From a virus: a stretch of 64,000 bases of DNA. The number at the start of each line of letters is the position of its first letter. The first letter of the stretch is position 1. Shown here piece by piece: positions 12,310-57,674 of this stretch. The stretch spans positions 19,870 through 83,869 of the IMG/VR virus record IMGVR_UViG_3300044609_000483; one strand, 5' to 3'. Under the pieces are notes generated by a model. That model saw only the letters and a list, made by a program, of their open reading frames with translations, made no database searches and was not told the DNA's origin. The translations under genes and the position numbers were made by a program.

Positions 12310-12313
12310 AATT

Positions 12314-18082: not shown

Positions 18083-18084
18083 AT

Positions 18085-18699: not shown

Positions 18700-18700
18700 A

Positions 18701-19468: not shown

Positions 19469-19487
19469 ACTTTTATTTTTATATTAT

Positions 19488-21709: not shown

Positions 21710-21712
21710 GAT

Positions 21713-22989: not shown

Positions 22990-22992
22990 AAA

Positions 22993-35479: not shown

Positions 35480-36223
35480 ATGTTTGTAAGTGTTTGTAAT
35501 AAAGATTATCTAATCGGGTTTGAAGTAATGTTAAAATCATTAATTGATAACAACCCAAGAGTTGTAAATGAAAATATTCCATTTGTTATAATTAGTAACG
35601 ATTTAAACCCTGAAGATTTAATTACCTCAAGAAAAATATACAACAATATTCATATAAAAAAGTTTGATACTGAAAAATATTTTGAGATAGAAAAATTAAA
35701 AGACCAACAAAGAATGTTTGGTGATTATACAAAATATGAAATTTTTTCATTAACGGAATTTGATAAGATTATATTTTTAGATTGTGACATTGTTGTATTA
35801 GGTAACATAGATTATTTGATTGATTATGAAAAACCTTTTGGTGCAGTAAGAGAACTTTATATTGACCAATATAACACTGGGGTAATGGTAATTAGTAAAG
35901 AATTTTTAAATGAAAAAATAACAAATGATTTAATTCATTTAACAACAATTTATGGAATTACAGAACATTTAGACCAAGATATTATTGACCACTACTTTAG
36001 TGATATTATCACCCCAATTTCTATCGAATACAATTATTTAAAAACATATTCTAAAGAAATATTTAAAAATTCGGGTTTACCTAAATATATTAAAATATTA
36101 CATTTTATTGCAAAAAAACCTTGGCAAAACAAACCATTGGTCTTTTTAGAAGAAGGAACAATTTGGCAAGAAAAATATTGGTTTGATTATTATTCTAAAA
36201 TTCTTAAATTAAAAAATGGTTAA
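35480..36223 (+). CDS. Glycosyltransferase family 8-like
   Basis: This 247-residue protein has the GT8 pattern: MFVSVCNKDYLIGFEVMLKS, then FDKIIFLDCDIVVLGNIDYL with the DxD at residues 101-103. QYNTGVMVIS follows, then a Gln-Asp acceptor region (HLDQDIIDHYF), and the C-terminal HFIAKKPWQ that corresponds to the HxxxxKPW of glycogenin/LgtC. It retains a nucleotide sugar with Mn2+. It starts the second glycan cluster directly after a fibre gene and overlaps the next gene by eight bases. Confidence 0.85.
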   Translation: MFVSVCNKDYLIGFEVMLKSLIDNNPRVVNENIPFVIISNDLNPEDLITSRKIYNNIHIKKFDTEKYFEIEKLKDQQRMFGDYTKYEIFSLTEFDKIIFLDCDIVVLGNIDYLIDYEKPFGAVRELYIDQYNTGVMVISKEFLNEKITNDLIHLTTIYGITEHLDQDIIDHYFSDIITPISIEYNYLKTYSKEIFKNSGLPKYIKILHFIAKKPWQNKPLVFLEEGTIWQEKYWFDYYSKILKLKNG

Positions 36224-37124
36224 AAGACATTACGATAATTCAGAACTATTAAAATATACTGAAAGAGATCCTAATTTATCTAATTTTAAAGATAAAGAAC
36301 TTTTATTACATTTTGATTCTTTTTGTTTGGGAGATACGATATGTTTTTCATCCCTTATAGACCCGTTTATGGAATATCATAAACCAAAAAAAGTTTATAT
36401 ATCAACATTCTTCCCCCACTTACTAAAGTCAACAAATCCAAAGTATGAGTTTATAAACGCAAATCAATCTAAATCTATTGAGATAGATAAGTTAATTGAT
36501 GTTGGGTACCATAAAGATAATATGTCCCATACTCTTGGTGGAATGTTTTATGCTGCAAAAGATACAATGTTCTTACCTCAAGAAACAAAACCAGGTAAAT
36601 GTCCAGTAATACCCAAACAAAGAATCATAAATAAAAATAAAATAACGATGGGTCCTGAAACAATAAAGGAAATATCAAAATGGGAATATAAGGATGGTTG
36701 GCAAACAATCATAAATGAATTGGTTAATAGTAATTTTGATGTTTATAATGTTTCGTATGAAAATACATTAAATTTACAAAACGCAAAAGGATTTCACGGA
36801 AACAACGATATAAATGTTTCATTAAATCATATTTTAGAATCAAGATTTTTTATTGGTTTATCTTCTGGGTTATCTTGGTTGGCGTGGGCGTATGGAGTTC
36901 CTGTTGTTATGATATCAAACTTCACTAAAAAACAAAACGAGTTTGAATGTTTTAGAGTTGAAAATCCTTATGTATGTAACGGATGTTTTAATATGTTTCC
37001 AAACATTAAAAGTAGTTGTCCAATATTTTTAAACACTGAAAGAGAAAATGAATGTCATAGGAGTATAACACCAGAAATGGTTATTAATAAAATAAACCAA
37101 GTAATTAACTTTACTAATAGTTAA
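36216..37124 (+). CDS. GT9 glycosyltransferase, TibC/autotransporter heptosyltransferase-like
   Basis: This 302-residue protein has an N-terminal LLLHFDSFCLGDTICFSSLI, the GT9 opening with conserved Asp. A C-terminal half follows with FIGLSSGLSWLAWAYGVPVV and a Cys pattern CNGC...C...C (VCNGCFNMFPNIKSSCPIFL, then ENECHRSITPEMV). The same order, including the metal-binding cysteines, is known from TibC-type O-heptosyltransferases that modify serines of beta-solenoid autotransporters. It is shorter than TibC and lacks its N-terminal beta-barrel part. It sits next to a beta-roll fibre, which makes the fibre a natural acceptor. The donor sugar is not known. Confidence 0.75.
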   Translation: MVKRHYDNSELLKYTERDPNLSNFKDKELLLHFDSFCLGDTICFSSLIDPFMEYHKPKKVYISTFFPHLLKSTNPKYEFINANQSKSIEIDKLIDVGYHKDNMSHTLGGMFYAAKDTMFLPQETKPGKCPVIPKQRIINKNKITMGPETIKEISKWEYKDGWQTIINELVNSNFDVYNVSYENTLNLQNAKGFHGNNDINVSLNHILESRFFIGLSSGLSWLAWAYGVPVVMISNFTKKQNEFECFRVENPYVCNGCFNMFPNIKSSCPIFLNTERENECHRSITPEMVINKINQVINFTNS

Positions 37125-38850: not shown

Positions 38851-38852
38851 TT

Positions 38853-39302: not shown

Positions 39303-39763
39303 CCTGGGAAGTTAAAAATCATGGAGGAAATCCTACAACGAATGAAAGTAAGAAATATGCAATCTTTATAGGCCGTTTCCAACCATATCATTATGGTCAT
39401 ATAGAGTTAATACAACAAAAATTAAATCAAGGTATTCCGGCCCTTATTATGGTTAGAGATATTGAACCTGATGATAAAAATCCATTTACAACAGAACAAA
39501 CCGTTACAATGATTGAGAAATATCACAAATCAAAAGGTGATAATGTTAAGGTTATTGTTATTCCAGATATTGAATCTGTTAATTACGGTAGAGGTGTTGG
39601 GTATGAAATAAATGAATTTACTCCTCCAGATAATATTGGTTTTATTTCCGCAACAGGTATTAGAAACTCAATATCAAAAGAAGATGATAAATGGAAATTT
39701 ATGGTTGACGAATCAATACAAGAAGATATAATTAATTATTTGACGGATGAAAACACAAAGTAA
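39299..39763 (+). CDS. HxGH-type nucleotidylyltransferase
   Basis: This 154-residue protein has IGRFQPYHYGHIELIQ with HYGH at residues 31-34, the adenylyl/cytidylyl-transferase signature. NPFTTEQTVTMIEKYH follows, then a C-terminal ISATGIRNSI resembling the ISST.IR motif. These are the landmarks of NadM/NMN-adenylyltransferase-like enzymes. Its place directly after APS kinase and sulfotransferase makes sulfate adenylation (an ATP sulfurylase role) worth considering, because ATP sulfurylases use the same fold and motif. NMN adenylyltransferase activity is the more conservative reading. Confidence 0.75.
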   Translation: MTWEVKNHGGNPTTNESKKYAIFIGRFQPYHYGHIELIQQKLNQGIPALIMVRDIEPDDKNPFTTEQTVTMIEKYHKSKGDNVKVIVIPDIESVNYGRGVGYEINEFTPPDNIGFISATGIRNSISKEDDKWKFMVDESIQEDIINYLTDENTK

Positions 39764-41154: not shown

Positions 41155-44100
41155 ATGTCAAAAGTATATAGAAACCCAATAACCCCAATTGTCTCTTTAG
41201 GACCACAATCCGTATTGAGAACTAAACCGTTTGGGACAACGTTTAGTGTATTAAATATTGGTGGTTATATGGAAGTATATACCACAAATGATTTATTATA
41301 TACAATACCTTCAGGTCAAACAGGGTATATTGAATTTATTGGAAATACAATACCTATACATTATTATAAAGGAACTGGTTCGGTATTTTCATTTGACTCA
41401 ATAGTTCTTAATTCTGATAATATATCTTCAGGTAGAAGAAGATTAGGTATGTTGGCATATGCTTACAGTGGAGATACGGTTTATCAATTCAATATAGAAA
41501 ATTACAATACATTATTTTTAAATGCCTCTGGAGCAACAGGTCCCGGAGGTAGAACCGTAATATTTTCAGACTATGGTACAACAGTTAGAAATAACACACC
41601 TGAAGGTGTTGCATTTATTAATGCTTGGTTAGACAATTCAATTGAAGGTGTAAATGGTGTTACAAGAAATGATTCGGTTTGGAAAGTATTCCCGGAACCT
41701 GGTTGTTGTTTAACTGGGGGAACATATTTTTCAGGTAGTAGTACTTTAGAATTATATAACAATGATGGATCAACAATTATAATAACTGGAATAACCTCTG
41801 GGGGTGGTGGTTCAGGAACTAGCGGAACTTCAGGGACTAATGGTACTAATGGTACTTCAGGTACTAACGGTACTAGCGGAACGAATGGTTCTTCGGGCAC
41901 AAGTGGTGGTTCAGGAACGGCAGGGTCTTCAGGAACTAATGGTAGTTCGGGTAGTGATGGGACAAGTGGTGCAAATGGAACTTCAGGAACTAATGGTACA
42001 TCTGGGAGTAATGGAACTGACGGAACAAGTGGTATATCCGGAACAAGTGGTATATCTGGAACAAGTGGTATATCTGGAACATCGGGGGATAATGGATCAA
42101 GTGGAACCAACGGTACGTCAGGAACGAATGGAACAAGTGGGACTAATGGAACTTCAGGAACTAATGGAACAAGTGGGATATCTGGAGTAAATGGAACTTC
42201 AGGTACTAATGGTACAAATGGTACGGATGGTACGGATGGGTCTTCAGGTACAAATGGTACGGATGGGTCTTCAGGTACAAATGGAACTTCAGGTACAAAT
42301 GGAACTTCAGGAACGAATGGAACCTCAGGAACTAATGGTACAGATGGAACTTCTGGGACCAACGGAACAAATGGTACCTCAGGAACATCAGGAACAAATG
42401 GTATTAGTGGCACATCTGGAACTAATGGTACTTCAGGATTAAACGGTACTTCGGGGACAAATGGAACTTCGGGTACTAATGGAACTTCGGGTACTAATGG
42501 AACTTCGGGTACTAATGGTACAAACGGAACTTCAGGCGCGAACGGTACGTCAGGTACAAATGGGACTTCAGGAACTAATGGTACAAATGGTACAAATGGT
42601 ACAAGTGGAACCAATGGGACTAATGGAACAAGTGGAACATCTGGTACTAACGGGACAAATGGAACATCTGGTACTAACGGAACAAATGGTTCAAGCGGTA
42701 CCAACGGGACATCAGGAACTAATGGAACTTCGGGTACTAATGGAACTTCGGGTACTAATGGAACTTCGGGTACTAATGGAACAAATGGTTCATCAGGGTC
42801 TTCAGGGACTAATGGAACAAATGGTTCAAGTGGGACCAACGGTACAAATGGTACAAATGGTACTAACGGAACTAATGGTACGAGCGGGACAAATGGTACT
42901 AGCGGTACAAATGGTACGAGCGGAACAAATGGAACTAGCGGAACAAGTGGAATATCGGGAGTAAATGGAACGTCAGGTACTAACGGAACAAATGGTACAA
43001 GTGGAACTAACGGAACAAATGGTACTTCGGGAACAAATGGTAGTTCAGGAACAGATGGAACAAGTGGTACGGATGGAACTAGCGGAACGGATGGTACTAA
43101 TGGATCTTCAGGAACAGACGGGACTAATGGGTCTTCAGGGACTAATGGAACAGATGGAACTAGTGGTACGGATGGTACAAGTGGTACAGATGGAACTTCA
43201 GGTACAAATGGAACAGATGGATCTTCAGGAACTAACGGTACGGATGGTTCAAGTGGTACCGATGGTACAAGCGGAACAGACGGTACTAGTGGTACAGACG
43301 GAACTAATGGGTCAAGCGGAACAAATGGAACAGATGGTACTTCAGGTACTGATGGAACAAATGGATCTAGCGGAACCGATGGAACTAGTGGTAGTTCAGG
43401 TACAGATGGGACTAGCGGTACTGATGGTACAAATGGTAGTTCGGGAACAGATGGTACAAGTGGAACAAATGGAACAGATGGTAGTTCAGGCACAAATGGT
43501 ACAGATGGAACTTCAGGTACAAATGGAACCGATGGGTCTTCAGGAACTAACGGTACTGATGGATCAAGCGGTACTGATGGAACAAACGGAACAGACGGGA
43601 CTTCAGGTACTGACGGCACAAGTGGTATATCTGGAGTAAACGGAACTTCAGGTACAAGTGGAACTAATGGAACAGATGGAACATCAGGTACTGATGGTAC
43701 TAACGGATCTTCAGGTACTAGCGGAACAAATGGGACAAACGGAACTTCGGGAACTAATGGAACAAACGGAACGTCAGGTACAAATGGTACTTCAGGAACT
43801 AATGGAACATCAGGTACTAATGGTACTAACGGAACATCAGGGACAAACGGAACAAATGGAACTAGCGGCACTAATGGAACATCAGGAACAAACGGAACAA
43901 ATGGAACTAGCGGCACTAATGGAACAAATGGAACTAGCGGCACTAATGGAACAAATGGGTCTTCAGGAACTAACGGTACAAACGGAACATCAGGGACTAA
44001 TGGTACAAGCGGAGTTAATGGGGAATCAGGGACTTCTGGGACATCAGGCACCAACGGAACAAATGGTACTAATGGAACTTCAGGTACTAATGGTACGAGC

Positions 44101-47100
44101 GGGGTAAGTGGAGACTCAGGATCTTCAGGCACAAATGGAACTAGTGGAACTAATGGGACATCAGGCACCAACGGAACAAATGGTACCAATGGAACTTCGG
44201 GTACAAATGGTACAAATGGTACTAGCGGTACAAACGGAACATCAGGAACTAACGGTACGTCAGGAACGAATGGTACAAGTGGAGTAAATGGAACATCAGG
44301 TACTAACGGCACAAGCGGAGTAAATGGTGACTCAGGGTCTTCAGGAACAAATGGAACGTCAGGAACTAGTGGAACAAACGGAACTAGCGGAACGAATGGA
44401 ACAAACGGGACTAGCGGAACGAATGGGACTTCAGGTACAAATGGAACAAATGGAACGTCAGGGACTAACGGCACAAATGGTACTAGCGGTACGAATGGAA
44501 CATCGGGCACAAATGGTACTAGCGGAGTAAATGGTGATTCAGGATCTTCAGGTACAAACGGAACATCTGGTACTAATGGTACTTCAGGCACTAATGGTAC
44601 TAACGGAACATCGGGAACAAATGGTACTAGCGGTACGAACGGTACTAGTGGCACTAACGGAACGAATGGAACTTCAGGTACCGACGGTACTAGTGGAACA
44701 AATGGTACTAGCGGTACTTCGGGTACAAACGGAACAAATGGAACGTCAGGTACTAACGGAACGAATGGAACTTCAGGTACAAACGGAACTTCTGGAACTA
44801 GTGGTACCAACGGTACAAATGGAACTTCAGGAACAAATGGTACATCAGGTACTAACGGAACGAATGGAACTTCAGGTACCGACGGCACTAGTGGAACAAA
44901 TGGTACGAACGGTACTTCAGGAACAAACGGATCATCAGGGACAAATGGGACTAGTGGTACAAATGGTACTAGCGGAACTAATGGAACTAATGGAACTAAT
45001 GGAACAAACGGAACTTCAGGAACTAATGGTACTAGCGGAGTAAATGGAGACTCAGGATCTTCAGGCACAAACGGAACATCTGGTACTAACGGTACTTCAG
45101 GGACTAATGGTACTAATGGTTCAAGTGGTACTAACGGTACAAGTGGTGTAAATGGAGAATCGGGAACCTCAGGTACTAACGGCACTTCAGGAACAAATGG
45201 TACTAGCGGAACAAATGGGACTAACGGTACTTCAGGAACCAATGGAACGTCAGGAACAAATGGTACCAACGGAACTTCAGGGACAAATGGGACATCAGGA
45301 ACTAACGGTACTAACGGAACTTCAGGAACAAATGGTACGAGTGGAACTAACGGTACGTCAGGTACTAATGGTACGAATGGAACCTCAGGTACTAACGGAA
45401 CTTCAGGTACCAACGGAACGTCAGGGACCAATGGAACATCTGGCACTAATGGTACGAACGGAACTAACGGGACTTCAGGGACGAATGGAACCAACGGTAC
45501 GTCAGGTACAAATGGTACAAATGGTACTAGCGGAACGAATGGTACATCAGGAACTAACGGTACTTCAGGCACAAATGGAACTAATGGAACAAGTGGTACA
45601 AACGGTACTTCAGGGACAAACGGTACGAATGGTACAAGTGGTACCAACGGAACTAGTGGTACAAATGGAACAAATGGTACATCAGGGACTAATGGTACAA
45701 ACGGAACATCGGGAACGAATGGAACAAATGGTACTAGTGGGTCTAGTGGTTCTAGTGGCCTTTCTGGGGTTGATGGAACTGATGGGACATCAGGTACAAA
45801 CGGAACTTCGGGTACAAATGGAACTTCAGGTACTAATGGTACGAACGGAACGTCAGGAACAAATGGTACTAACGGAACAAACGGGACTTCGGGTACAAAT
45901 GGTACAAATGGGACTAGCGGAACTAATGGAACTTCGGGTACTAATGGGACGAATGGTACCTCAGGTACAAATGGTACATCAGGTACTAACGGCACAAATG
46001 GAACATCAGGAACAAATGGAACTTCAGGTACTAATGGTACGAGCGGAACCAATGGAACTAGTGGATCATCACCAACAGTTCCAGGGTCAAACGACCAAAT
46101 ACTAACTTCAAACGGATCGGGTGGAATAGTTGCCGAATCTCTTTTAACTTTTGACGGTACAAAATTAAGTGTATTGTATCAGGCTGGTGATGAAGGTGGA
46201 GAAATCCTATTAAGTAAACCTGTAACTAACACTACCATTGCAGGCGCAGGCGTTACTTTTGACGTATGGCAAAATAGAATTAGGTTTTTTGAACAAGGTG
46301 GTACTGCAAGAGGTGCGTTTCTTGACATAACCGCATGTGCTGCGGGTGTCGGCACAAATTTATTAACATCTGCCGGAACTTCAGGTACAAATGGAACTTC
46401 AGGTACAAATGGTACTTCAGGTACAAACGGAACAAATGGAACATCAGGAACAAATGGGACGAATGGAACCAACGGTACTAATGGAACTTCGGGAACAAAT
46501 GGAACCAATGGGACTTCAGGTACAAATGGAACTTCAGGTACAAGCGGAACAAATGGAACTTCAGGGACCAATGGAACTAACGGAACATCGGGAACTAATG
46601 GTACTAATGGTACGTCAGGTACTAATGGAACGAATGGGACTAATGGGACTTCAGGTACAAACGGAACGAATGGAACTAACGGTACATCGGGTACTAATGG
46701 AACTAGCGGTACAAATGGTACGAGCGGGACCAATGGAACTAACGGAACTTCAGGGACTAACGGAACAAATGGTACTTCGGGAACTAATGGAACTTCAGGA
46801 ACAAATGGGACTAGCGGAACTTCAGGGACTAATGGAACATCGGGAACTAATGGTACTAATGGTACTAATGGTACTAATGGTACTAATGGGACTTCAGGTA
46901 CTAATGGAACATCGGGCACAAATGGTACTAGCGGAGTAAATGGTGACTCAGGATCTTCAGGCACCAACGGAACTTCGGGAACAAACGGTACGAATGGAAC
47001 TAATGGGTCTTCAGGTACGAACGGTACATCGGGCACTAATGGAACAAATGGTACTAGCGGAACAAATGGGACTAACGGAACATCGGGTACTAATGGTACA

Positions 47101-49584
47101 AATGGAACCAATGGTACAAACGGAACTAATGGAACATCAGGTACTAATGGAACCAACGGAACTTCGGGAACAAATGGTACTAATGGGACTTCAGGAACTA
47201 ATGGAACTAACGGAACGAATGGTACAAGCGGTACTAATGGAACATCTGGTACTAACGGAACAAATGGAACTAGTGGAACCAATGGGACTAACGGTACGAA
47301 TGGAACTTCGGGAACTAACGGCACATCAGGTACCAACGGAACTTCAGGTACTAACGGTACGAATGGAACTAACGGTACTAATGGAACTTCAGGTACTAAC
47401 GGTACGAACGGAACTAGTGGTACAAATGGTACTAACGGATCTTCAGGTACAAACGGAACAAATGGTACATCAGGAACAAACGGTACTAACGGAACTAATG
47501 GTACTAATGGAACATCAGGAACAAATGGAACATCGGGTACTAATGGAACAAATGGTTCAAGCGGTACTAATGGTACGAATGGAACCTCAGGAACGAACGG
47601 AACATCAGGTACGAATGGAACTAATGGTACGTCGGGAACGAATGGTACTTCAGGGACTAATGGTACAAACGGAACTTCAGGAACTAACGGAACTAATGGT
47701 ACGAGCGGAACTAATGGCACTAATGGAACTTCAGGAACTAATGGAACTTCGGGAACAAATGGTACAAACGGAACAAATGGAACATCAGGTACTAACGGAA
47801 CTAGTGGCATTTCATTTAATTGGCAAGGTTCATGGAACTTAATGTCCACTTACAATATAAATGATGTCGTTCAATTTGCCGGTAGTTCTTATATTTCATT
47901 AATAAATGGTAATACGGGGATACCAACTCCTCCATTTAGTGGTAATTGGGCATTAATGGCACAGGCAGGAACTTCAGGTACAGATGGAACTTCAGGAACA
48001 GATGGAACTTCAGGAAATAATGGAAATCCTGGAAAAGTGGGTAATGATGGATCAAATAGTGGAAGATGGTTTTATGACGGAACTTTTCCAATACCTGCAA
48101 GTCCTTCTTCAACGACTTTTCTTGCGGATACACAAATAATATCAACAATTTCAGCAATTGCTATTAATATTGAGGATATTAATACAACAAATTATTACGA
48201 TTGGTTTGACTCATTAAACACTTTAATATCGGCGGGTAATAAAGGTTATCTACAAATAACAGAATTATCTAATAATAGTGTAATTGGAATCTATGAGATT
48301 GGTGTTATAACAGATAATATCACATATTGGGAGATATCACTTACTTTTGTCACTGGTTCAGGGTCGTTAACTGACACTGCCGAATATACTGTTTCATGGG
48401 TCTTTAATGGACTAGATGGCACGTCAGGTACGAATGGTACTAATGGTACTAATGGAACAAATGGTACTTCAGGAACAAATGGTACTAATGGGACTAATGG
48501 AACTAATGGAACTAATGGAACTAGTGGTACGAATGGAACTAGTGGTACGAATGGGTCTAGTGGTACGAATGGGTCTTCAGGTACAAATGGAACTTCGGGT
48601 ACCAACGGTACTTCAGGCGCTAGCGTAGTAATAAATTCCAACGCAAACAATTATTTAGTTACTGCCACAGGTACTGCAAACACACTACAAGGAGAGTCAG
48701 GAGCAATATTTGATGGTACAACTTTAACGTTAGAAAAAGATAGTGCATCTCCAAACATATCAATGACAGACCGTGCTACAAATGACCCATTTGTAAGGTT
48801 TATACCGTCAACCGGAACAAACTCAGTTGCGGTTGGTATTGATAACACCAACCAAGCATTTACCATATCTTATGGTGCAACCGCAGTTCTTGGAAGTAAT
48901 AATAGAATGTCTATTTTTACTACTGGAAATATTGGAATAAATAATTTCTTACAAATTGGTAGCTCAGGTGCGCCCACATATCCATTAGATGTTACTTCAG
49001 GCACTAGAGTTACTGATGGAATTAGTGCTCGTATTATTAATGCATCGAGTGAAGGTGTGCTTTTCTCACCATATGTAAGTGCGGGAGGATACAATAATAA
49101 CAGTGTTCTTGGAGATACCGCTATGGTTTCAACTACGGGTGAAAACTTAGTTATTGGTGCTAACGGTTCAAATGCTGGTTTTAGATTTATCAATACTGGA
49201 AACACAACAACAACAGTTGGTAATCTTTATTCGATTGGCTCATCGACAAAATTAGGTTACGATACAGGTGCTGGTGGAACTGTAACTCAGTTAACAAGTA
49301 AATCAACAGGGGTCACTCTTAGTAGACCAACAGGACAAATAGTGATGCACAGCGCAACATTGAACGCCGACACAACGGTATCCTTCACTTTAACTAATAC
49401 TACGATTGGTGCAACAGACATTGTAGTTCTCCAACACACCTCTGTTGGTACAAGCGCTTCTTACAATTTAAATGCATTTCCATCAGGAGGTTCTGCGGTT
49501 ATTTCAGTGAGAAATGTTACAACGGGTAATTTGGGTCAGGCAATTGTTTTATCGTTCGCAGTTATAAGAGCGGTAACCGCTTAA
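41155..49584 (+). CDS. Giant collagen-like tail fibre (2809 residues)
   Basis: The N-terminal 220 residues form a unique attachment domain (MSKVYRNPITPIVSLGPQSV). About 1990 residues are Gly-X-Y triplets, mostly GTN, GTS and some GTD, with almost no proline. Blocks lie at residues about 221-1637, 1741-2218, 2272-2302 and 2422-2488. Globular islands interrupt them: a beta-domain at 1638-1740 (SSPTVPGSNDQIL...), a CBM5/12-like module at 2219-2271 (NWQGSWNLMSTYNINDVVQF), and a small domain at 2303-2421. The C-terminal 320 residues form a beta-rich tip (SVAVGIDNTNQAFTIS). It would be a long trimeric fibre; the Thr/Ser side chains could be O-glycosylated. Confidence 0.85.
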   Translation: MSKVYRNPITPIVSLGPQSVLRTKPFGTTFSVLNIGGYMEVYTTNDLLYTIPSGQTGYIEFIGNTIPIHYYKGTGSVFSFDSIVLNSDNISSGRRRLGMLAYAYSGDTVYQFNIENYNTLFLNASGATGPGGRTVIFSDYGTTVRNNTPEGVAFINAWLDNSIEGVNGVTRNDSVWKVFPEPGCCLTGGTYFSGSSTLELYNNDGSTIIITGITSGGGGSGTSGTSGTNGTNGTSGTNGTSGTNGSSGTSGGSGTAGSSGTNGSSGSDGTSGANGTSGTNGTSGSNGTDGTSGISGTSGISGTSGISGTSGDNGSSGTNGTSGTNGTSGTNGTSGTNGTSGISGVNGTSGTNGTNGTDGTDGSSGTNGTDGSSGTNGTSGTNGTSGTNGTSGTNGTDGTSGTNGTNGTSGTSGTNGISGTSGTNGTSGLNGTSGTNGTSGTNGTSGTNGTSGTNGTNGTSGANGTSGTNGTSGTNGTNGTNGTSGTNGTNGTSGTSGTNGTNGTSGTNGTNGSSGTNGTSGTNGTSGTNGTSGTNGTSGTNGTNGSSGSSGTNGTNGSSGTNGTNGTNGTNGTNGTSGTNGTSGTNGTSGTNGTSGTSGISGVNGTSGTNGTNGTSGTNGTNGTSGTNGSSGTDGTSGTDGTSGTDGTNGSSGTDGTNGSSGTNGTDGTSGTDGTSGTDGTSGTNGTDGSSGTNGTDGSSGTDGTSGTDGTSGTDGTNGSSGTNGTDGTSGTDGTNGSSGTDGTSGSSGTDGTSGTDGTNGSSGTDGTSGTNGTDGSSGTNGTDGTSGTNGTDGSSGTNGTDGSSGTDGTNGTDGTSGTDGTSGISGVNGTSGTSGTNGTDGTSGTDGTNGSSGTSGTNGTNGTSGTNGTNGTSGTNGTSGTNGTSGTNGTNGTSGTNGTNGTSGTNGTSGTNGTNGTSGTNGTNGTSGTNGTNGSSGTNGTNGTSGTNGTSGVNGESGTSGTSGTNGTNGTNGTSGTNGTSGVSGDSGSSGTNGTSGTNGTSGTNGTNGTNGTSGTNGTNGTSGTNGTSGTNGTSGTNGTSGVNGTSGTNGTSGVNGDSGSSGTNGTSGTSGTNGTSGTNGTNGTSGTNGTSGTNGTNGTSGTNGTNGTSGTNGTSGTNGTSGVNGDSGSSGTNGTSGTNGTSGTNGTNGTSGTNGTSGTNGTSGTNGTNGTSGTDGTSGTNGTSGTSGTNGTNGTSGTNGTNGTSGTNGTSGTSGTNGTNGTSGTNGTSGTNGTNGTSGTDGTSGTNGTNGTSGTNGSSGTNGTSGTNGTSGTNGTNGTNGTNGTSGTNGTSGVNGDSGSSGTNGTSGTNGTSGTNGTNGSSGTNGTSGVNGESGTSGTNGTSGTNGTSGTNGTNGTSGTNGTSGTNGTNGTSGTNGTSGTNGTNGTSGTNGTSGTNGTSGTNGTNGTSGTNGTSGTNGTSGTNGTSGTNGTNGTNGTSGTNGTNGTSGTNGTNGTSGTNGTSGTNGTSGTNGTNGTSGTNGTSGTNGTNGTSGTNGTSGTNGTNGTSGTNGTNGTSGTNGTNGTSGSSGSSGLSGVDGTDGTSGTNGTSGTNGTSGTNGTNGTSGTNGTNGTNGTSGTNGTNGTSGTNGTSGTNGTNGTSGTNGTSGTNGTNGTSGTNGTSGTNGTSGTNGTSGSSPTVPGSNDQILTSNGSGGIVAESLLTFDGTKLSVLYQAGDEGGEILLSKPVTNTTIAGAGVTFDVWQNRIRFFEQGGTARGAFLDITACAAGVGTNLLTSAGTSGTNGTSGTNGTSGTNGTNGTSGTNGTNGTNGTNGTSGTNGTNGTSGTNGTSGTSGTNGTSGTNGTNGTSGTNGTNGTSGTNGTNGTNGTSGTNGTNGTNGTSGTNGTSGTNGTSGTNGTNGTSGTNGTNGTSGTNGTSGTNGTSGTSGTNGTSGTNGTNGTNGTNGTNGTSGTNGTSGTNGTSGVNGDSGSSGTNGTSGTNGTNGTNGSSGTNGTSGTNGTNGTSGTNGTNGTSGTNGTNGTNGTNGTNGTSGTNGTNGTSGTNGTNGTSGTNGTNGTNGTSGTNGTSGTNGTNGTSGTNGTNGTNGTSGTNGTSGTNGTSGTNGTNGTNGTNGTSGTNGTNGTSGTNGTNGSSGTNGTNGTSGTNGTNGTNGTNGTSGTNGTSGTNGTNGSSGTNGTNGTSGTNGTSGTNGTNGTSGTNGTSGTNGTNGTSGTNGTNGTSGTNGTNGTSGTNGTSGTNGTNGTNGTSGTNGTSGISFNWQGSWNLMSTYNINDVVQFAGSSYISLINGNTGIPTPPFSGNWALMAQAGTSGTDGTSGTDGTSGNNGNPGKVGNDGSNSGRWFYDGTFPIPASPSSTTFLADTQIISTISAIAINIEDINTTNYYDWFDSLNTLISAGNKGYLQITELSNNSVIGIYEIGVITDNITYWEISLTFVTGSGSLTDTAEYTVSWVFNGLDGTSGTNGTNGTNGTNGTSGTNGTNGTNGTNGTNGTSGTNGTSGTNGSSGTNGSSGTNGTSGTNGTSGASVVINSNANNYLVTATGTANTLQGESGAIFDGTTLTLEKDSASPNISMTDRATNDPFVRFIPSTGTNSVAVGIDNTNQAFTISYGATAVLGSNNRMSIFTTGNIGINNFLQIGSSGAPTYPLDVTSGTRVTDGISARIINASSEGVLFSPYVSAGGYNNNSVLGDTAMVSTTGENLVIGANGSNAGFRFINTGNTTTTVGNLYSIGSSTKLGYDTGAGGTVTQLTSKSTGVTLSRPTGQIVMHSATLNADTTVSFTLTNTTIGATDIVVLQHTSVGTSASYNLNAFPSGGSAVISVRNVTTGNLGQAIVLSFAVIRAVTA
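41815..46065 (+). repeat. Collagen-like GTN/GTS/GTD repeat block 1
   Basis: This is 1417 codons of Gly-X-Y with X almost always Thr or Ser, and Y usually Ser, Asn or Asp. Synonymous codons vary continually, so DNA copies are poorly conserved while the protein pattern is exact. Asp is concentrated at 43045-43625; recurrent GVNGDSGSSG-type cassettes occur at 44011, 44101, 44317, 44524, 45037 and 45145. Confidence 0.95.
46375..47808 (+). repeat. Collagen-like repeat block 2
   Basis: This is 478 codons of GTN/GTS triplets, nearly free of Asp, with one GVNGDSGSSG cassette at 46933. It lies between the globular island at 46066-46374 and the CBM-like module. Confidence 0.95.
48418..48618 (+). repeat. 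Collagen-like repeat block 4
   Basis: This is 67 codons of GTN/GTS/GSS triplets just before the C-terminal tip. A short block 3 of about 31 codons (GTSGTDG...) lies at 47968-48060. Confidence 0.9.
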
Positions 49585-49663: not shown

Positions 49664-52600
49664 TTATTTCATTAATTTTTTTATCACAATACAATTTGAT
49701 GTAAATAAAATGCTTTCAATTTTTAAAGTATTATTAAATCCATTGTATTTGTAATTAACATTATGTGTTAATTTACTAAAATAATCAACAACATTTAAAT
49801 AACCAATTTCATACCCATATAATTCAGATAATGGATCCCAATACGACGTTTCAACGTCTTCAATAATATAGTACCCACCATCTTCTAATAAATTCTCAAA
49901 AAGATAATTAAAGGTTTTAATTTGATGTTGTGGATTATGGGAAGCATCATCAATTATGACTTTACAACTTTTTATTTCTGATGTGATTTTTTCTAAATCA
50001 AATAAGTTATTTTGGTCTCCTTTAAAAATATGACCCCTATCATGTGAAAATTCCCTATTGATATCTAAACCATATATATTAGCATTCTTCAAATAGTCTC
50101 TCCAAACATTTAAAGATGCTCCCTCATGAATTCCGATTTCTAATAACGAAAATACCTCATCTCTTATCCCTTCAAATATTTTTGAATAGACGTTATGGTA
50201 TGTGTGTGTGGATGTTTTATCGCAATTATAATAATCACTTATTTTTTTGAATTCGTTTTCTTCCATTACTTCTTTGTTATTTTTGTGGTTATCGTCTACT
50301 CTATTAACAATTGATGTTTCCATTAAATCTTCATAAAAAAGTTCTTTAACATTTAAGTTTTGTTTTTTTACCGCATCTTTTGTTATTATTTCTAATATTT
50401 TATTATACCCGTCATAATTATAATATTCGTCTTTTGTGTTATAGTGGGTAAATGGTTTAATTAACTTATCTATTTTTCCTGTAAAAAATCCAGTACAGTA
50501 TGAGTCTTGCGTATATGATTTATTTTTATATCTATAAAATACGGAATCGTAATTTTCTAATAATTTATAATTATCTTGTAATGTATTTTTGTTTATTAAA
50601 TAATCGTAATTTATAATATGAGAATATTTAAATCCTAATTTTTTTGATTCAGTTAATCCATTTTGTATTAATTTATAAACGGCATACCCATGTTCATAAT
50701 CAAAAGACTCCCTTACCTCAACCCCTTTTCTGACACTATAAAAATAAAAAGACACGTTATACTTATTAAAATCCTCCTTCAATAATATTGGGTTATCCTC
50801 ATCATATATGACGTAATCACATAAAACTTTAATTTCATCATCAATTGGGTAATTTGTTGATAGTAGTATTTTTGTGTTAATTGTTTTTAAATGTTCTATT
50901 AAAATTTTTCTTTTTTCTTTTGTGTTTGCATGGGACAATATAATAGTAACTAAATCACTATTAAATTCTTTGTTAATTATTTTATTTATTTCTTTAATAA
51001 CCATATCGGAACTTATTTCTTTTGTACATTCAAACATCCGATCCGTATTCTTATGTAGTGGACACCAATTCCAATCACCAGCATCTAATCTATCTGAGTT
51101 AAAACATCCATGACAAACACTTTCGTTAATAACTCTGTATGTATCTAAAGTTGTTTCCGCCCATTTCTCACTAAATCCTGAAATCAAAACGACAGGTAAT
51201 TTACAAGCCCAAGCCAACCAAGATAAACCAGACCCTAAACCAATAAAGAACTCACAACTTGATAGGTCATCAATTACTTCTTGTAGGTTACCTCCTTTAA
51301 ATATTGTTACACCTTCAGGATAATGGTTATTCATATATCCATCACCTTCTTTAGAATAGACCATACATTCATATCCCAAATTATTAAGATGGTCTATAAC
51401 TGTTTGCCATCCGTCAGGGTTGTTCCAATATTTTGATTGTGCAGTTGAGTGAAACCCAATACCAACTTTTTTCTTTTTAGGTGTATCAGGTAATTTTAAT
51501 AGTGGTCTAACTTCTTCATAATCTAAACCTAATATATCGGTTGCAGTTTTTTGTAATGGCATTTTCTTAAAATCAAATGGGTGTTTGTTTGCATCAAATT
51601 TACCATCTTCATTGTAAAACCAACCTAATCTATATTGTGCATGTATATTAGTTACCAAATCACCAGGTTCAACAAATTCAATATCAGGATATTGGTCTTT
51701 AAACAAACTATTAAGGAATGTTGATACTATAAGTTGACAACCATGTTTTTTTCTAAATACCTCACAATAAGGAATCCAAGCCATTGTATCTCCTAATGAT
51801 TTTGATCCAAAAGAAATATATACTCGTTTATCTTTTAAATTTAAAGTCTCATCGTAAATGATTTCACCATTTTCTTCAACCGTTGTTCTCCATTTAATAA
51901 AGTATTCTTTATTTAATTTAACCCAACTATTAATTGATAATTCGTTCTGATAATTAACATTATTGTTATCATCATAATATTTAATGTTCAATTTGTTTTC
52001 TGTGGTTCCTTGTACCTCAAAATAAGGTTGATTAACATAATGTCTAACAAAAGTATAATCTTTGGTTAATGGTTTGTTTTGGGTAATTTTTATATTTGTA
52101 ACTGCGTTATAAAAATTTAATAAATCTTCACCAAATGTATTATCAGGTAATATTTTATAAACGTCCTTATTTTCGATAAGTCCAACCAATTGTTTTGATA
52201 TGTTTTTAACATCACCTTCTATTGGTGTTATATATCCATCAAACATACCCATGTATTGTGGTAAATCTCTTGCAAGGATTTTCATTCCATAGTTGATTGA
52301 TTCTCTAACAACCAACGGATTACATTCCCAAGTTGAGTTAAACATTAAAACATCACAAGCCGTCATGAATTTTTCAACGTCATTACGCTCACCCCATACT
52401 TTTACGTTTGATGGTAAATTATTCATTATTGGACCCCAATAGTCTTCAAAGTTTGGAGCTTGGTTCCCAATAAAATGGAATTCAATATCTGGATTTGATT
52501 CAATTAATTCTCTTGCAACCTCAACACCTTCACCTTGATTTTTACCACTTGTCCATAACCCAACATTAAGTACGTGAGTTTTAAACATATCCAAACCAAG

Positions 52601-54139
52601 TTCATTTCTTACTTTAATTTTTTCAATAAGTGGTACTTGATTAAAATCACCATAGATTTCATTCTCCTCTAAAATTTTAGTTACCTTATTCTCAATTGGG
52701 TATAACGATAAAAACTTAATTGGTGTTTCATTTAAAAACGTTTCCTTTAAATGATAAGGGGTAACAAAACAATACGCTTCAGGATTGAACTTTTTATGTG
52801 TTTGCGGATTAAACCAAACATTATGACAAGTCTCAACCATTTTCCAAGACCTATCATTTGAATAAAGTTGATTTAACAATGGTAGTGGAATTTTATTAAA
52901 ACTTTCAAATCCTTCTAACATTTCTTCAGAATGGACAATATCAATATCATTGTTTTTAATAATATCAATTAACTCATATTTTCTTTTTGTGTTGGTTGTA
53001 TCACCTAAACTAAAAAAATGACCTTCACCTAATAGATTAATTATTTTATCTCGTTGGACAACGTATGTGTTACTAAACTGAGAATACTCAACCAAAAATA
53101 TTTCAATTTGGTCTTTGTATTTTTGGAGTTCTTGAATTCTTTTTAATACAAATTGAGGCATTCCACCTGTTGATAGGTGTGGTGTAAGATATAATAGTTT
53201 AATTTTTGATTTATTCATAATAATTTCAATAACATTGTGGATAATATTTTTTATTTTTTCTGTTATATCCGATGATATTCCATCATAAGATATTAAAACA
53301 TTTTTTATATTGCATGGTTTAAACCCTAAATTAATGATATCCCTATTGGATATATCATAAGAGGACTCGACACCATCTACGGTAATTAAAACATTTATTT
53401 TTTCTTTATTATTGTAAAAATATAAACAAACCTCATCATTATTTACAACATCTTTAACTATAAAAAAAACTAAACCATTAATATCAGAGTAATCAAATAA
53501 ATTTTCGTCTTTATGAAATAATATTAAATCATCAATTTTTTCTAATTCAATTTTATAATCCAGATTACTATTAATTAGAGTATCATAAAGCCAGTTCTCA
53601 ACTATACAATTAAATTTAAGGTAACTATCAAAAGTAATCAGATTTGAAAATTTCAATAGGTTTTCTCTGTCTAACGCAATTAAATGTAAACTAACTTTGT
53701 GTTCATGAAATGGAAAAAAGTTACATATTTTATCAGATAAAAAAGTAGAAACCACCGTATCATCAATTTCCGTATCATATATAATATGATAATATCTGTC
53801 ATAGTCATAAGTTAAAGCATATTCAGATAATTTTTTAGTTTGGTAAAGTCCCGCCCACCCATAATCAATTACAGATCTTTTAATCACAATTTCTTTATCT
53901 TTGTCCGTATGTCTTACCCAAGACATAACAGATTTTTCGGGCCAATTAAGTAATGGGTTTTCTTTTGTTTGCACATAAAAATCACACATATTTATCACAT
54001 CGGAAGGTAAGGGTAAAGGACTATTTACCATTACATCTAAATTGTAACTCTTAACGGATTTGATGGTATTTATTAAAACATCAATTTTTTCTTTGGTATC
54101 ACAATAAGAACTTATTAAAACTATTTTAGTTTTTTTCAT
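49664..54139 (-). CDS. Multi-module glycan enzyme: GT-A-like, GT4, TibC-like GT9, GT-A-like and methyltransferase
   Basis: I chose the ATG at 54139 (MKKTKIVLISSYCDTKEK), 1491 residues; a longer start at 54157 adds six. Five modules are visible. (1) 1-305 is GT-A-like. (2) 308-690 is a GT4-type GT-B (LLYLTPHLSTGGMPQFVLKR, WECNPLVVRESINYG). (3) About 768-1051 is TibC-like O-heptosyltransferase: FGSKSLGDTMAWIP, FIGLGSGLSWLAWACKLPVV, CHGC...CPLH...FEC metal site. (4) About 1060-1280 repeats module 1 (TKEKRKILIEHLK, DEDNPIL). (5) 1297-1491 is a class I methyltransferase (LEIGIHEGASLNVWRDYL, KVIIDDASHNPQHQIKTF). One chain could start, extend and cap a glycan by methylation. It lies alone on the minus strand between fibre genes. 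Confidence 0.8.
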   Translation of the reverse strand: MKKTKIVLISSYCDTKEKIDVLINTIKSVKSYNLDVMVNSPLPLPSDVINMCDFYVQTKENPLLNWPEKSVMSWVRHTDKDKEIVIKRSVIDYGWAGLYQTKKLSEYALTYDYDRYYHIIYDTEIDDTVVSTFLSDKICNFFPFHEHKVSLHLIALDRENLLKFSNLITFDSYLKFNCIVENWLYDTLINSNLDYKIELEKIDDLILFHKDENLFDYSDINGLVFFIVKDVVNNDEVCLYFYNNKEKINVLITVDGVESSYDISNRDIINLGFKPCNIKNVLISYDGISSDITEKIKNIIHNVIEIIMNKSKIKLLYLTPHLSTGGMPQFVLKRIQELQKYKDQIEIFLVEYSQFSNTYVVQRDKIINLLGEGHFFSLGDTTNTKRKYELIDIIKNNDIDIVHSEEMLEGFESFNKIPLPLLNQLYSNDRSWKMVETCHNVWFNPQTHKKFNPEAYCFVTPYHLKETFLNETPIKFLSLYPIENKVTKILEENEIYGDFNQVPLIEKIKVRNELGLDMFKTHVLNVGLWTSGKNQGEGVEVARELIESNPDIEFHFIGNQAPNFEDYWGPIMNNLPSNVKVWGERNDVEKFMTACDVLMFNSTWECNPLVVRESINYGMKILARDLPQYMGMFDGYITPIEGDVKNISKQLVGLIENKDVYKILPDNTFGEDLLNFYNAVTNIKITQNKPLTKDYTFVRHYVNQPYFEVQGTTENKLNIKYYDDNNNVNYQNELSINSWVKLNKEYFIKWRTTVEENGEIIYDETLNLKDKRVYISFGSKSLGDTMAWIPYCEVFRKKHGCQLIVSTFLNSLFKDQYPDIEFVEPGDLVTNIHAQYRLGWFYNEDGKFDANKHPFDFKKMPLQKTATDILGLDYEEVRPLLKLPDTPKKKKVGIGFHSTAQSKYWNNPDGWQTVIDHLNNLGYECMVYSKEGDGYMNNHYPEGVTIFKGGNLQEVIDDLSSCEFFIGLGSGLSWLAWACKLPVVLISGFSEKWAETTLDTYRVINESVCHGCFNSDRLDAGDWNWCPLHKNTDRMFECTKEISSDMVIKEINKIINKEFNSDLVTIILSHANTKEKRKILIEHLKTINTKILLSTNYPIDDEIKVLCDYVIYDEDNPILLKEDFNKYNVSFYFYSVRKGVEVRESFDYEHGYAVYKLIQNGLTESKKLGFKYSHIINYDYLINKNTLQDNYKLLENYDSVFYRYKNKSYTQDSYCTGFFTGKIDKLIKPFTHYNTKDEYYNYDGYNKILEIITKDAVKKQNLNVKELFYEDLMETSIVNRVDDNHKNNKEVMEENEFKKISDYYNCDKTSTHTYHNVYSKIFEGIRDEVFSLLEIGIHEGASLNVWRDYLKNANIYGLDINREFSHDRGHIFKGDQNNLFDLEKITSEIKSCKVIIDDASHNPQHQIKTFNYLFENLLEDGGYYIIEDVETSYWDPLSELYGYEIGYLNVVDYFSKLTHNVNYKYNGFNNTLKIESILFTSNCIVIKKLMK

Positions 54140-56426: not shown

Positions 56427-57674
56427 ATGAGAATATTTGTTCAGATTGCGTCCTATAGGGACCCTCAATTAATTCCAACAATAAAAGATATGATAGGTAA
56501 TGCAAAATCACCTGAGAACCTAAGAATAGGTATTGCAAGACAATTTCACCCTGAAGATAAATTTGATGATTTAACGGAATATGAAAATGACGATAGATTT
56601 AGAATTTTAAATATACCACACGAAGAATCAACAGGAGTTTGTTGGGCAAGAAACCAAGTTCAACAACTTTATAAAAACGAAGAATATACCCTACAAATAG
56701 ATTCCCATATGCGTTTTGAAAAAAACTGGGATGAAACTTTAATTAATATGATTAAAGAATTACAAGAAAAGGGTTATAAAAAACCATTATTAACCGGATA
56801 TGTTTCATCTTTTGACCCGGAAAACGACCCAGAAGGTAGAGTTACAGAACCTTGGCGTATGGCTTTTGATCGATTTACCCCTGAAGGAGTTGTATTCTTT
56901 TTACCTGAAGTTATACCGGGATGGAAAGAACTAACGGAACCAATCCCATCAAGATTTTATTCGGCACATTTTTGTTTTACATTGGGGGAGTTCTCAAAAG
57001 AAGTCCAACACGACCCAGAATATTATTTTCACGGAGAGGAAATTTCAGTAGGAGTAAGGGCATATACTCACGGATATGATTTATTTCATCCACATAGAGT
57101 TATTATTTGGCATGAATATACTCGTAAGGGTAGAACAAAACAATGGGACGACGATAAAGAATGGTATCTAAAAAATAGCTCATCCCACTCCAAGAATAGA
57201 AAAATTTTGGGTATTGATGGGGAATCTTTTGATGGTGACTTAGGGAAATACGGATTTGGTACTGAAAGGACTTTAAAAGATTATGAAAAATATGCTGGGG
57301 TTATGTTTTCAAAAAGATCGATACAACAATATACAATAGATAAAAAATACCCACCAAACCCATATGATTTTAATAATGAGGAAGAGTGGGAAAAAAGTTT
57401 TTTACAAATATTCAAACACTGCATTGATTTACCATTAAATAAAATACCAGAAAATGATTATGAATTTTTTGTGGTTGCGTTTCATAATAAATCAGATGAA
57501 ACTTTATTTAGACAAGACGCTGATGTTAACGAAATAATTAGAATAAAAAATGATTCCGACGGATATGGAAAAATATGGAGAGAGTTTAACACTCAAGAAA
57601 AACCAACATATTGGGTTGTCTGGCCTTTTTCCAAATCAAAAGGATGGTGTGAAAGAATAACAGGAAATTTATGA
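56427..57674 (+). CDS. GT60-like (Skp1-type) polypeptide GlcNAc-transferase-like enzyme
   Basis: This 415-residue protein has the GT60 order: IFVQIASYRDPQLIPTIKDM, VCWARNQVQQLYKNEEYTLQ followed by IDSHMRFEKNWDE (DSH acts as the DxD). ARVTEPW-like, FCFTLGEFSKEVQHDPEYYF followed by HGEEISV, and HPHRVIIWHEYTRKGR complete it. Characterised members add alpha-GlcNAc to hydroxyproline of Skp1 in Dictyostelium, so the family is known to act on polypeptides. In a phage a Ser/Thr fibre or a glycan could be the acceptor. It follows fibre genes and overlaps the next glycosyltransferase by four bases. Confidence 0.82.
   Translation: MRIFVQIASYRDPQLIPTIKDMIGNAKSPENLRIGIARQFHPEDKFDDLTEYENDDRFRILNIPHEESTGVCWARNQVQQLYKNEEYTLQIDSHMRFEKNWDETLINMIKELQEKGYKKPLLTGYVSSFDPENDPEGRVTEPWRMAFDRFTPEGVVFFLPEVIPGWKELTEPIPSRFYSAHFCFTLGEFSKEVQHDPEYYFHGEEISVGVRAYTHGYDLFHPHRVIIWHEYTRKGRTKQWDDDKEWYLKNSSSHSKNRKILGIDGESFDGDLGKYGFGTERTLKDYEKYAGVMFSKRSIQQYTIDKKYPPNPYDFNNEEEWEKSFLQIFKHCIDLPLNKIPENDYEFFVVAFHNKSDETLFRQDADVNEIIRIKNDSDGYGKIWREFNTQEKPTYWVVWPFSKSKGWCERITGNL

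What the first reader, a model, noticed from the sequence alone, without database searches (positions are those of the whole stretch)
49664..54139. A ~1490-residue five-module glycan enzyme in a phage, with a TibC-type O-heptosyltransferase at its centre and a methyltransferase at its end
Sequence shows two related GT-A-like modules (start and residue ~1060), a GT4-type GT-B, a TibC-like domain with its metal-binding Cys set, and a C-terminal class I methyltransferase. TibC/BAHT enzymes are known to glycosylate serines on beta-solenoid autotransporters; chain-capping methyltransferases are known in polysaccharide termination. I infer an assembly-line enzyme that initiates, extends and methyl-caps a glycan on beta-roll fibre proteins.
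Basis: partly seen in the sequence, partly recalled or inferred. Interest (0 to 1): 0.85.

Follow-up and report, generated by a model that had tools for sequence, protein, structure and literature searches.

The report
Phage enzyme that likely glycosylates collagen
A phage carries one very large enzyme with several sugar-adding parts and a methyl-adding part, and gene neighbourhoods in phages and bacteria suggest that it coats a giant collagen-like phage protein with a methylated sugar chain.

Summary
The ORF is real, intact and on the minus strand (49664-54139, 1,491 aa), with dN/dS 0.08-0.23 in the comparisons made. Its modules: GT-A-like (weak) - GT4 - TibC-like - GT-A - class I O-methyltransferase. 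The TibC module passes NCBI's equivalog cut-off (293.5 vs 200 bits) and keeps the catalytic Asp, the phosphate and heptose contacts and all four iron-finger Cys. It lacks the adenine-reading Arg-286.

The gene lies 79 bp from a 2,809-aa collagen-like protein with 666 Gly-X-Y triplets (Thr 88% at X; mostly Asn or Ser at Y). This pairing recurs. Of 14 bacterial loci with a stand-alone TibC homologue, 13 have a Gly-Thr/Ser-X protein within 1 kb. The triplet pattern is in 16 of 16 TibC genomes against 27 of 273 others, and in 29 of 35 phage TibC records against 1 of 23 related phage records. TibC is in 18 of 39 phage records chosen only by Gly-Thr-Ser DNA, and in none of 19 with Gly-Pro-X collagen alone.

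Best reading: a branch of the TibC family modifies Gly-Thr/Ser-X collagens, and phages built it into shuffled glycosyltransferase-methyltransferase chains. No chemistry is shown.

The parts
49664..54139 (-). Five-module enzyme, 1,491 aa (P0001)
   Evidence: Intact ORF; 97% full-length relative L001; dN/dS 0.13
53225..54139 (-). Module 1 (residues 1-305), GT-A-like by homology to module 4; unknown C-terminal part
   Evidence: hhalign 94.9%, E 4.5e-8 to module 4; separate gene in L004, L036, L083; poor model
52070..53203 (-). Module 2 (residues 313-690), GT4-type GT-B
   Evidence: Pfam over cut-off at 516-664; E-x7-E at 605
50960..52042 (-). Module 3 (residues 700-1060), TibC-type glycosyltransferase; D784, T899, K903, W974, C1009/C1012/C1026/C1038 kept; V955 replaces TibC R286
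   Evidence: TIGR04414 293.5 bits; 4rap E 4.4e-70; residues
50315..50953 (-). Module 4 (residues 1063-1275), GT-A fold glycosyltransferase
   Evidence: Model pLDDT 81; Foldseek; VIA Z 15.1
49667..50254 (-). Module 5 (residues 1296-1491), class I methyltransferase nearest to sugar O-methyltransferases
   Evidence: phrog_21658 4.2e-18; MycE 3ssm 7e-13, 8ia9 1.5e-8
41155..49584 (+). Proposed substrate: 2,809-aa collagen-like protein, 666 Gly-X-Y triplets (GTN 324, GTS 224, GSS 39, GTD 37), convergent with the enzyme gene
   Evidence: Pfam Collagen 5.1e-266; composition
36216..37124 (+). Second, solo TibC-like protein (302 aa), below family cut-off; Cys set, D110 and W305 kept, T226/K230 not
   Evidence: TIGR04414 125.8 bits; residues
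54191..55129 (+). GT9-type glycosyltransferase, divergent neighbour
   Evidence: Pfam Glyco_transf_9 7.5e-15
56427..57674 (+). GT60-type (GlcNAc) glycosyltransferase; rival initiator
   Evidence: PF11397 1.1e-72; distribution

Best explanation
The protein is a single-chain glycan-building enzyme of a T4-like phage. Its TibC-type module most likely puts the first sugar on side-chain hydroxyls (Ser first, possibly Thr) of the Gly-Thr/Ser-X triplets in the neighbouring 2,809-aa collagen-like phage protein. The GT4 and GT-A modules extend that sugar, and the C-terminal methyltransferase O-methylates it, probably as a cap. The result would be a long collagen-like fibre coated with a short methylated glycan. 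Shown: the ORF, module identities, conserved catalytic and iron-finger residues, purifying selection, module shuffling in relatives, and a recurrent pairing of this TibC branch with Gly-Thr/Ser-X proteins in phages and bacteria. Inferred: that the collagen is the acceptor, the order of the steps, the donor sugars, the methyl cap, and the role on the virion.
For: Enzyme.

Partner: PF01391 at 5.1e-266 in the neighbour, 79 bp between the two genes. Thr or Ser is 94% of X positions (628 of 666), whereas the viral collagen average for Thr at X is 3.1% (PMC3368898, passage).

Pairing in bacteria: of 14 loci with a stand-alone TibC homologue, 10 have a Gly-Thr/Ser-X ORF within 8-176 bp, 3 within 760-962 bp, 1 at 5.1 kb. 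Of six such partners scanned, five reach Pfam's Collagen cut-off; the sixth, L111, scores 26.9 against 27.2. Whole genomes: pattern in 16 of 16 (16 of 20 loci given) against 27 of 273 class relatives without TIGR04414 at E<=1e-20 (Fisher 3.6e-15). The reversed control pattern hits 28 of those 274 genomes (my count of the table), so the background of the forward pattern is at chance level.

Pairing in phages: 26 of 41 TibC clusters (95% identity) have a collagen ORF of 12 or more triplets in the flank, median gap 690 bp. Pattern in 29 of 35 TibC records against 1 of 23 records with a closely related capsid protein. Reverse test: TIGR04414 over cut-off in 18 of 39 records picked only by GTS DNA, 0 of 23 capsid relatives (one sub-cut-off match), and 1 of 20 Gly-Pro-X collagen records; that one is the only one of the 20 that also has the Gly-Thr/Ser-X pattern.

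Module linkage. Known TibC sites are Ser-313 in ...QNSGG... and Ser-322 in ...NTSAA... (passage), a context close to T-S-G.
Against: No chemistry is shown. TibC was found to modify Ser, not Thr, while X is 88% Thr; the Ser count is 323 (42 at X, 281 at Y) in 666 triplets. 15 of 41 TibC clusters have no collagen ORF in the flank held, and 6 of 35 records lack the pattern anywhere. 21 of 39 GTS records have no TIGR04414 over cut-off; some may be fragments. 18 of 41 TibC clusters have no C-terminal part after TibC. Arg-286, needed in TibC, is Val here. Records share ancestry and some near-duplicates remain, so the Fisher values overstate independence. Members of a dodecameric family are here fused to about 1,100 extra residues, so ring assembly is unclear. 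Gly-Thr-Ser repeats almost without proline may not form a triple helix.
Confidence: 0.6

Rival explanations
1. One reading: the enzyme heptosylates Ser on a beta-solenoid or beta-roll tail fibre (for example the YadA-head-like repeats, by eye, of 33732-35384), as TibC and AAH do on autotransporters.
For: Family membership over the curated cut-off. TibC/AAH targets are beta-helices (passages). A second TibC-like gene lies two genes after the repeat protein 33732-35384.
Against: No TIGR04415 target repeat at E<=1 in the six window fibre candidates scanned and no Pfam family at E<=0.01 for 33732-35384. In bacteria the partner of this branch is in several loci a protein of about 100-140 aa made mostly of Gly-Thr/Ser-X triplets, with no room for a solenoid.
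Confidence: 0.12
2. The enzyme builds or alters a host surface polysaccharide or LPS core (superinfection exclusion); the collagen neighbour is only a co-inherited tail-fibre island.
For: GT4, GT9-like and FkbM or CmcI-type methyltransferases occur in polysaccharide clusters (established knowledge). The window holds many other sugar genes.
Against: Gly-Pro-X collagens of phages do not bring TibC (0 of 19 without the Gly-Thr/Ser-X pattern), so a generic tail island does not explain it. The pairing recurs in bacterial loci that show no phage genes by eye, such as L095-L097.
Confidence: 0.15
3. The GT60 (PF11397) neighbour starts the glycan on collagen Thr, and the five-module enzyme only elongates and methylates it.
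For: GT60 enzymes attach GlcNAc to hydroxyproline or Thr of proteins (recalled). One is present at 56427-57674 and PF11397 is in 15 of 27 TibC records.
Against: PF11397 is also in 5 of 23 capsid relatives, and none of those five has the Gly-Thr/Ser-X pattern. 12 of 27 TibC records lack it. In the bacterial loci listed the pair consists of TibC and the repeat protein.
Confidence: 0.13

Closest known systems
BAHT family, TibC/AAH (TIGR04414; PDB 4rap, 4rb4; PMC4358343)
   Same: Passes the equivalog cut-off; catalytic Asp, Thr-226, Lys-230, Trp-305, four iron-finger Cys and a hydrophobic thumb tip kept.
   Different: Arg-286 is Val and position 300 is Gly. The domain sits inside a GT4/GT-A/methyltransferase chain. 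The genomic partner is a Gly-Thr/Ser-X collagen, not an autotransporter.
Mimivirus L230 (lysyl hydroxylase / glucosyltransferase on viral collagen; passages of PMC9614988)
   Same: A virus-encoded multi-domain enzyme that glycosylates a virus-encoded collagen-like protein.
   Different: L230 acts on hydroxylysine with Glc through a GLT25D1-like domain. Here the linking enzyme is TibC-type, the expected acceptor is Ser/Thr, no hydroxylase was seen in the chain, and a methyltransferase is present.
BclA collagen glycans of Bacillus exosporium (abstract of PMC6222408 in listing; Thr linkage recalled)
   Same: Collagen region bearing short glycans with a methylated terminal sugar; it works like this.
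   Different: The enzymes are separate genes of other families and no TibC-type enzyme is known there (recalled).
Collagen-like side-tail proteins of E. coli prophages (EPclA; passages of PMC3368898)
   Same: Phage collagen-like structural protein.
   Different: Pro-rich and charged; recombinant EPclA was not glycosylated.
MycE / demethylmacrocin O-methyltransferase (3ssm, 8ia9)
   Same: Best sequence relatives of module 5 among solved structures; the IDD-SH and IED blocks align.
   Different: Stand-alone enzymes on small molecules (recalled).

Membership tests
BAHT / TIGR04414 hepto_Aah_TibC | Curated equivalog score (200 bits) | tested here: met
   293.5 bits, residues 719-1054
BAHT / TIGR04414 hepto_Aah_TibC | Catalytic base Asp-110 | tested here: met
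   D784; kept in 50 of 50 phage modules aligned
BAHT / TIGR04414 hepto_Aah_TibC | Iron finger, Cys-339/342/358/370 | tested here: met
   C1009, C1012, C1026, C1038; 50 of 50. Among 20 genome-contig homologues, L102 lacks it
BAHT / TIGR04414 hepto_Aah_TibC | Donor contacts Thr-226, Lys-230, Trp-305 | tested here: met
   T899, K903, W974; 49, 49 and 50 of 50 phage modules
BAHT / TIGR04414 hepto_Aah_TibC | Arg-286 reading adenine N1 (needed for activity in TibC) | tested here: not met
   V955; V 36, L 6, T 5, I 1, A 1, S 1 of 50 phage modules; also I/V/M in the Methylococcaceae-type clade; Arg in L102-L104, L106-L109, L111
BAHT / TIGR04414 hepto_Aah_TibC | Pro/Ser-300 stereoselectivity position | tested here: not met
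   G969
BAHT / TIGR04414 hepto_Aah_TibC | Thumb tip with two hydrophobic residues (Phe-265, Val-266) | tested here: met
   Y935, M936
BAHT / TIGR04414 hepto_Aah_TibC | Autotransporter / strand-loop-strand target (TIGR04415) | tested here: not met
   No TIGR04415 match at E<=1 in six window fibre candidates or four bacterial partners
BAHT / TIGR04414 hepto_Aah_TibC | Heptose transfer from ADP-heptose; dodecamer ring | not testable with these tools
   Needs biochemistry
Collagen-like protein (PF01391), 41155-49584 | Gly-X-Y repeat model | tested here: met
   859 bits, E 5.1e-266
Collagen-like protein (PF01391), 41155-49584 | Triple helix | not testable with these tools
   Pro once in 666 triplets; helix formation needs measurement
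GT4 glycosyltransferase (module 2) | Pfam cut-off and E-x7-E | tested here: met
   31.8 vs 26.4 and 31.6 vs 27 bits; ECNPLVVRE at 605
GT-A fold (module 4) | Structural match | tested here: met
GT-A fold (module 1) | Structural match | tested here: inconclusive
   Model pLDDT 52, not searched; only profile homology to module 4
Sugar O-methyltransferase, MycE/CmcI type (module 5) | SAM-fold and acidic motif blocks | tested here: met
   Sequence blocks around LEIG, IDDASH and IEDVETSYW align to MycE; their roles are recalled
Sugar O-methyltransferase, MycE/CmcI type (module 5) | Methyl transfer to a sugar hydroxyl | not testable with these tools
   Needs assay

The most novel reading that the evidence does not exclude
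The TibC/AAH family is misnamed for much of its range. A deep branch, present in phages and in several bacterial lineages, is a dedicated glycosyltransferase of Gly-Thr/Ser-X collagens, with a donor other than or beyond ADP-heptose in the Arg-286-less part. Phages turned it into mix-and-match single-chain assembly lines that build methyl-capped glycans on giant collagen fibres.
Probability: 0.45. Interest if true: 0.87.

Novelty: new variant of a known kind. Interest (0 to 1): 0.73.

Why it matters
If true, it gives a named enzyme family to the long, proline-poor Gly-Thr-Ser collagens of phages. It extends a family defined on virulence autotransporters to a second substrate class, and it shows a phage version of the glycosylated collagen seen in Bacillus spores and mimivirus. 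The shuffled module chains predict which sugars and caps a given phage uses. The bacterial two-gene pairs (TibC plus, in several loci, a repeat protein of about 100-140 aa) are minimal systems in which the reaction can be tested directly. In the PMC library I found no paper that joins the two, judging from listings: 'collagen-like' with 'heptosyltransferase' gave 1 unrelated paper; 'phage', 'heptosyltransferase', 'TibC' gave 5; 'GTSGTSG' gave 7; 'collagen-like', 'phage', 'glycosyltransferase', 'tail fiber' gave 3; 'collagen-like', 'glycosylat', 'phage', 'Gly-X-Y' gave 7. Subscription papers and preprints are not in that library.

Tried and rejected
Substrate as beta-solenoid: tested with NCBIfam and Pfam, no support.

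ADP-heptose synthesis in the window: the nucleotidyltransferase 39299-39763 looked like an HldE adenylyltransferase candidate, but its best models are NMN adenylyltransferases. The epimerase 13956-14993 matches GDP-fucose synthase first (91 bits) and ADP-heptose 6-epimerase second (67 bits), far below cut-offs. So heptose supply by the phage is not shown.

Loss of Arg-286 as a phage invention: rejected, because the six Methylococcaceae-type homologues also lack it.

GT60 as the collagen-specific enzyme: weakened.

Module 1 structure: poor model, not searched. COLGALT1 and LH3 rank high for module 4 in Foldseek but are not among the 50 rows shown by VIA-align, so I do not claim a collagen-galactosyltransferase relationship.

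Direct DNA match of the phage to named phages: none by megablast over 9000-33900. By protein, 13 named-collection records match the enzyme; nine of them (Mycobacterium and Synechococcus phages) only in the methyltransferase region, and Mel-JY01 and three uncultured large-phage records reach the TibC module. Paper searches on multidomain phage enzymes and on mycobacteriophage glycosylation gave nothing I used.

Dropped rows: 16 of 20 genome-contig loci were given to (L093, L102, L110, L112 left out as phage-like or odd bins; L093 and L110 do show such repeats, L102 and L112 do not). 35 of 78 viral loci went to (records of at least 40 kb; near-duplicates partly removed by eye, some remain, for example L018 with L026 and L021 with L066); 39 of 80 to (at least 40 kb); 23 of 80 to (at least 25 kb); 20 of 80 to (at least 40 kb and an in-frame collagen; 3 of 23 such records had none); 27 of the 35 TibC records. 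Two of the 39 GTS records (L242, L244) had no run of 10 triplets in the stretch held and were kept. The 27 of 273 background genomes include GTG, GSG, GCC and non-coding frames. The tree left out two short rows, L080 and the second module of L056.

Full report
What is there. The window belongs to an 83,869-base virus record (window = 19870-83869). A Gp23-type major capsid protein at 154-912 (1.7e-62) points to a T4-like phage. The reported gene is on the minus strand, 49664-54139, 1,491 aa, with no stop. L001 aligns over its whole length at 97%, dN/dS 0.13; GT4-TibC against L003 gives 0.08, module 4 against L003 0.23, module 1 against L083 0.13 and against L036 0.15; module 5 was compared only as part of L001. 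It is a selected gene, not chance.

Modules. Module 3 is the best identified: TIGR04414, 293.5 bits against a cut-off of 200, and TibC itself at E 4.4e-70. From the TibC structure paper (PMC4358343; outline, sections 9, 11, 12 and passages read) I took the functional residues. Asp-110, Thr-226, Lys-230, Trp-305 and all four iron-finger Cys are kept, the thumb tip FV is YM, Arg-286 is Val, and Pro-300 is Gly. Across 50 distinct phage modules, Asp-110, Trp-305 and the four Cys are invariant, and Arg-286 is absent from every one. Module 2 is GT4 with E-x7-E. Module 4 folds as GT-A. Module 1 is related to module 4 but its model is poor. Module 5 is nearest to macrolide-sugar O-methyltransferases (their substrates recalled).

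Architecture is fluid. One scan gave 265 stretches that encode relatives; the best 80 were kept as 78 loci. The common long form is GT4-TibC followed by about 220 aa, about 970 aa in all; in the three relatives scanned (L004, L083, L005) that tail is an FkbM methyltransferase by Pfam, and the others align with it by eye. The window form is M1-GT4-TibC-GTA-MT. L004 has M1 as its own gene and GT2-GT4-TibC-FkbM; L083 has M1 | MT-GT4-TibC-FkbM; L036 has M1 | GT4-TibC-tail; L074 has GT4-GTA-MT followed by a solo TibC gene. The named phage Mel-JY01 has GTA-MT-TibC on one chain of 1,226 aa, annotated as 'methyltransferase FkbM'. In 23 of 41 clusters the chain goes on past TibC by 218-680 aa; in 18 of 41 it ends there (0-67 aa). 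The same modules fused, split and reordered is classic evidence for one pathway. That two different methyltransferase families can fill the C-terminal place argues that methylation matters where it occurs.

The substrate. The gene is convergent with, and 79 bp from, a 2,809-aa collagen-like protein (PF01391, 5.1e-266). It has 666 Gly-X-Y triplets; X is Thr 586 and Ser 42; Y is Asn 341, Ser 281 and Asp 41; Pro occurs once. Synonymous codons are mixed (four Gly and four Thr codons in use), so the protein repeat, not just the DNA, is kept.

Bacteria give the cleanest test. A genome scan with the TibC alignment returned 20 loci. Fourteen carry a stand-alone TibC homologue, and each has an ORF with Gly-Thr/Ser-X triplets: 8-176 bp away in L095-L100, L107-L109 and L111 (10), 760-962 bp in L103, L104 and L106 (3), 5.1 kb in L101 (1). 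By eye, L095-L097, L099 and L100 start with Sec-type signals; of eight others checked by pattern, seven have a lipobox-like motif. Some are 102-142 aa and little else, which leaves no room for a beta-solenoid. Whole-genome pattern: 16 of 16 genomes, reversed pattern 2 of 16; in the class of G001 (Methylobacter luteus) 28 of 274, that is 27 of 273 without G001, reversed pattern 28 of 274 by my count, and TIGR04414 in G001 alone.

Phages agree in both directions. From TibC to repeats: 29 of 35 records, reversed pattern 0 of 35; 26 of 41 clusters have the collagen ORF in the flank, median gap 690 bp. From repeats to TibC: 18 of 39 records over cut-off, 19 of 39 with any match at E<=1e-10. Controls: 23 records with a 94-100% identical capsid protein have the pattern in 1 and TIGR04414 over cut-off in 0, with one sub-threshold match. 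Twenty Gly-Pro-X collagen records have TIGR04414 in 1, and that one alone also has the Gly-Thr/Ser-X pattern. So the link is to Thr/Ser at X, not to collagen in general. Fisher values are; they ignore shared ancestry and remaining near-duplicates.

Tree. Most phage modules, a Methylococcaceae-type bacterial clade (six loci, one binned as Polaromonas) and a gammaproteobacterial clade (seven loci) form separate groups; a few phage rows (L048, L052, L054 with L112) fall elsewhere, and TibC itself is a long, unplaced row. The collagen pairing is found in all three groups, so it is old or arose repeatedly.

How it probably works. The TibC module starts the glycan on Ser, or possibly Thr, of the triplets, since in bacteria it is a stand-alone gene beside the repeat protein. 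Published TibC sites are Ser, with contexts QNSGG and NTSAA (passage), close to the T-S-G of these repeats. The other glycosyltransferase modules then extend and the methyltransferase caps. The order, the donor and the cap are inference. Loss of Arg-286 leaves the nucleotide of the donor open.

Known parallels. Mimivirus L230 glucosylates viral collagen on hydroxylysine (passages, PMC9614988). E. coli prophage collagen EPclA is a trimeric protein, proposed as a side-tail protein, whose recombinant form was not glycosylated (passages, PMC3368898). Freshwater actinophages carry collagen-like proteins in a variable tail island (passages, PMC10202952). BclA is the nearest working analogue (abstract in listing; Thr linkage recalled). 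Hence: a new variant of a known kind.

Noticed in passing
36216-37124 (+) with 33732-35384 (+): A second, solo TibC-like gene (Cys set, Asp-110 and Trp-305 kept; Thr-226 and Lys-230 aligned to Ile and Ser) follows a GT8 gene and a protein with YadA-head-like GGGxxNTSS repeats (by eye); it could be the copy that acts on a beta-solenoid.
   Followed up: partly
38032-39763 (+): Sulfotransferase (PF13469, 1.9e-21), adenylyl-sulfate-kinase-like protein and an NMN-adenylyltransferase-like protein in a row: a possible PAPS and sulfation cassette, so the phage glycan may also be sulfated.
   Followed up: no
56427-57674 (+) and 57671-59356 (+): GT60-type GlcNAc transferase (PF11397) followed by a protein whose N-terminal half is HtrL_YibB; PF11397 also occurs in related phage records without TibC over cut-off or the repeat pattern.
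   Followed up: partly
41571-46052 (-); L116 739-2298 (-): The antisense of Gly-Thr-Ser repeats is a long open frame of VPLVPEVPF type. In Microcystis phage Mel-JY01 (PP395634) the deposited CDS WWT39287.1 sits on this antisense strand, so the collagen ORF is probably missed in the record.
   Followed up: partly
41155-49584 (+): The collagen-like protein holds 348 N-x-S/T sequons, so N-glycosylation of the same fibre cannot be excluded.
   Followed up: no
10440-24207 (-): GT2, GT4-like, GT92-like, epimerase, FkbM and CmcI-type methyltransferase genes are interleaved with PhoH, dUTPase and an exonuclease: a second sugar cassette.
   Followed up: no
L105, L110, L112, L093: TibC contigs binned as a deltaproteobacterium, Nitrosotalea, a 'bacterium' and Rickettsiaceae look like phage contigs by eye, so these bins are probably contaminated.
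   Followed up: no
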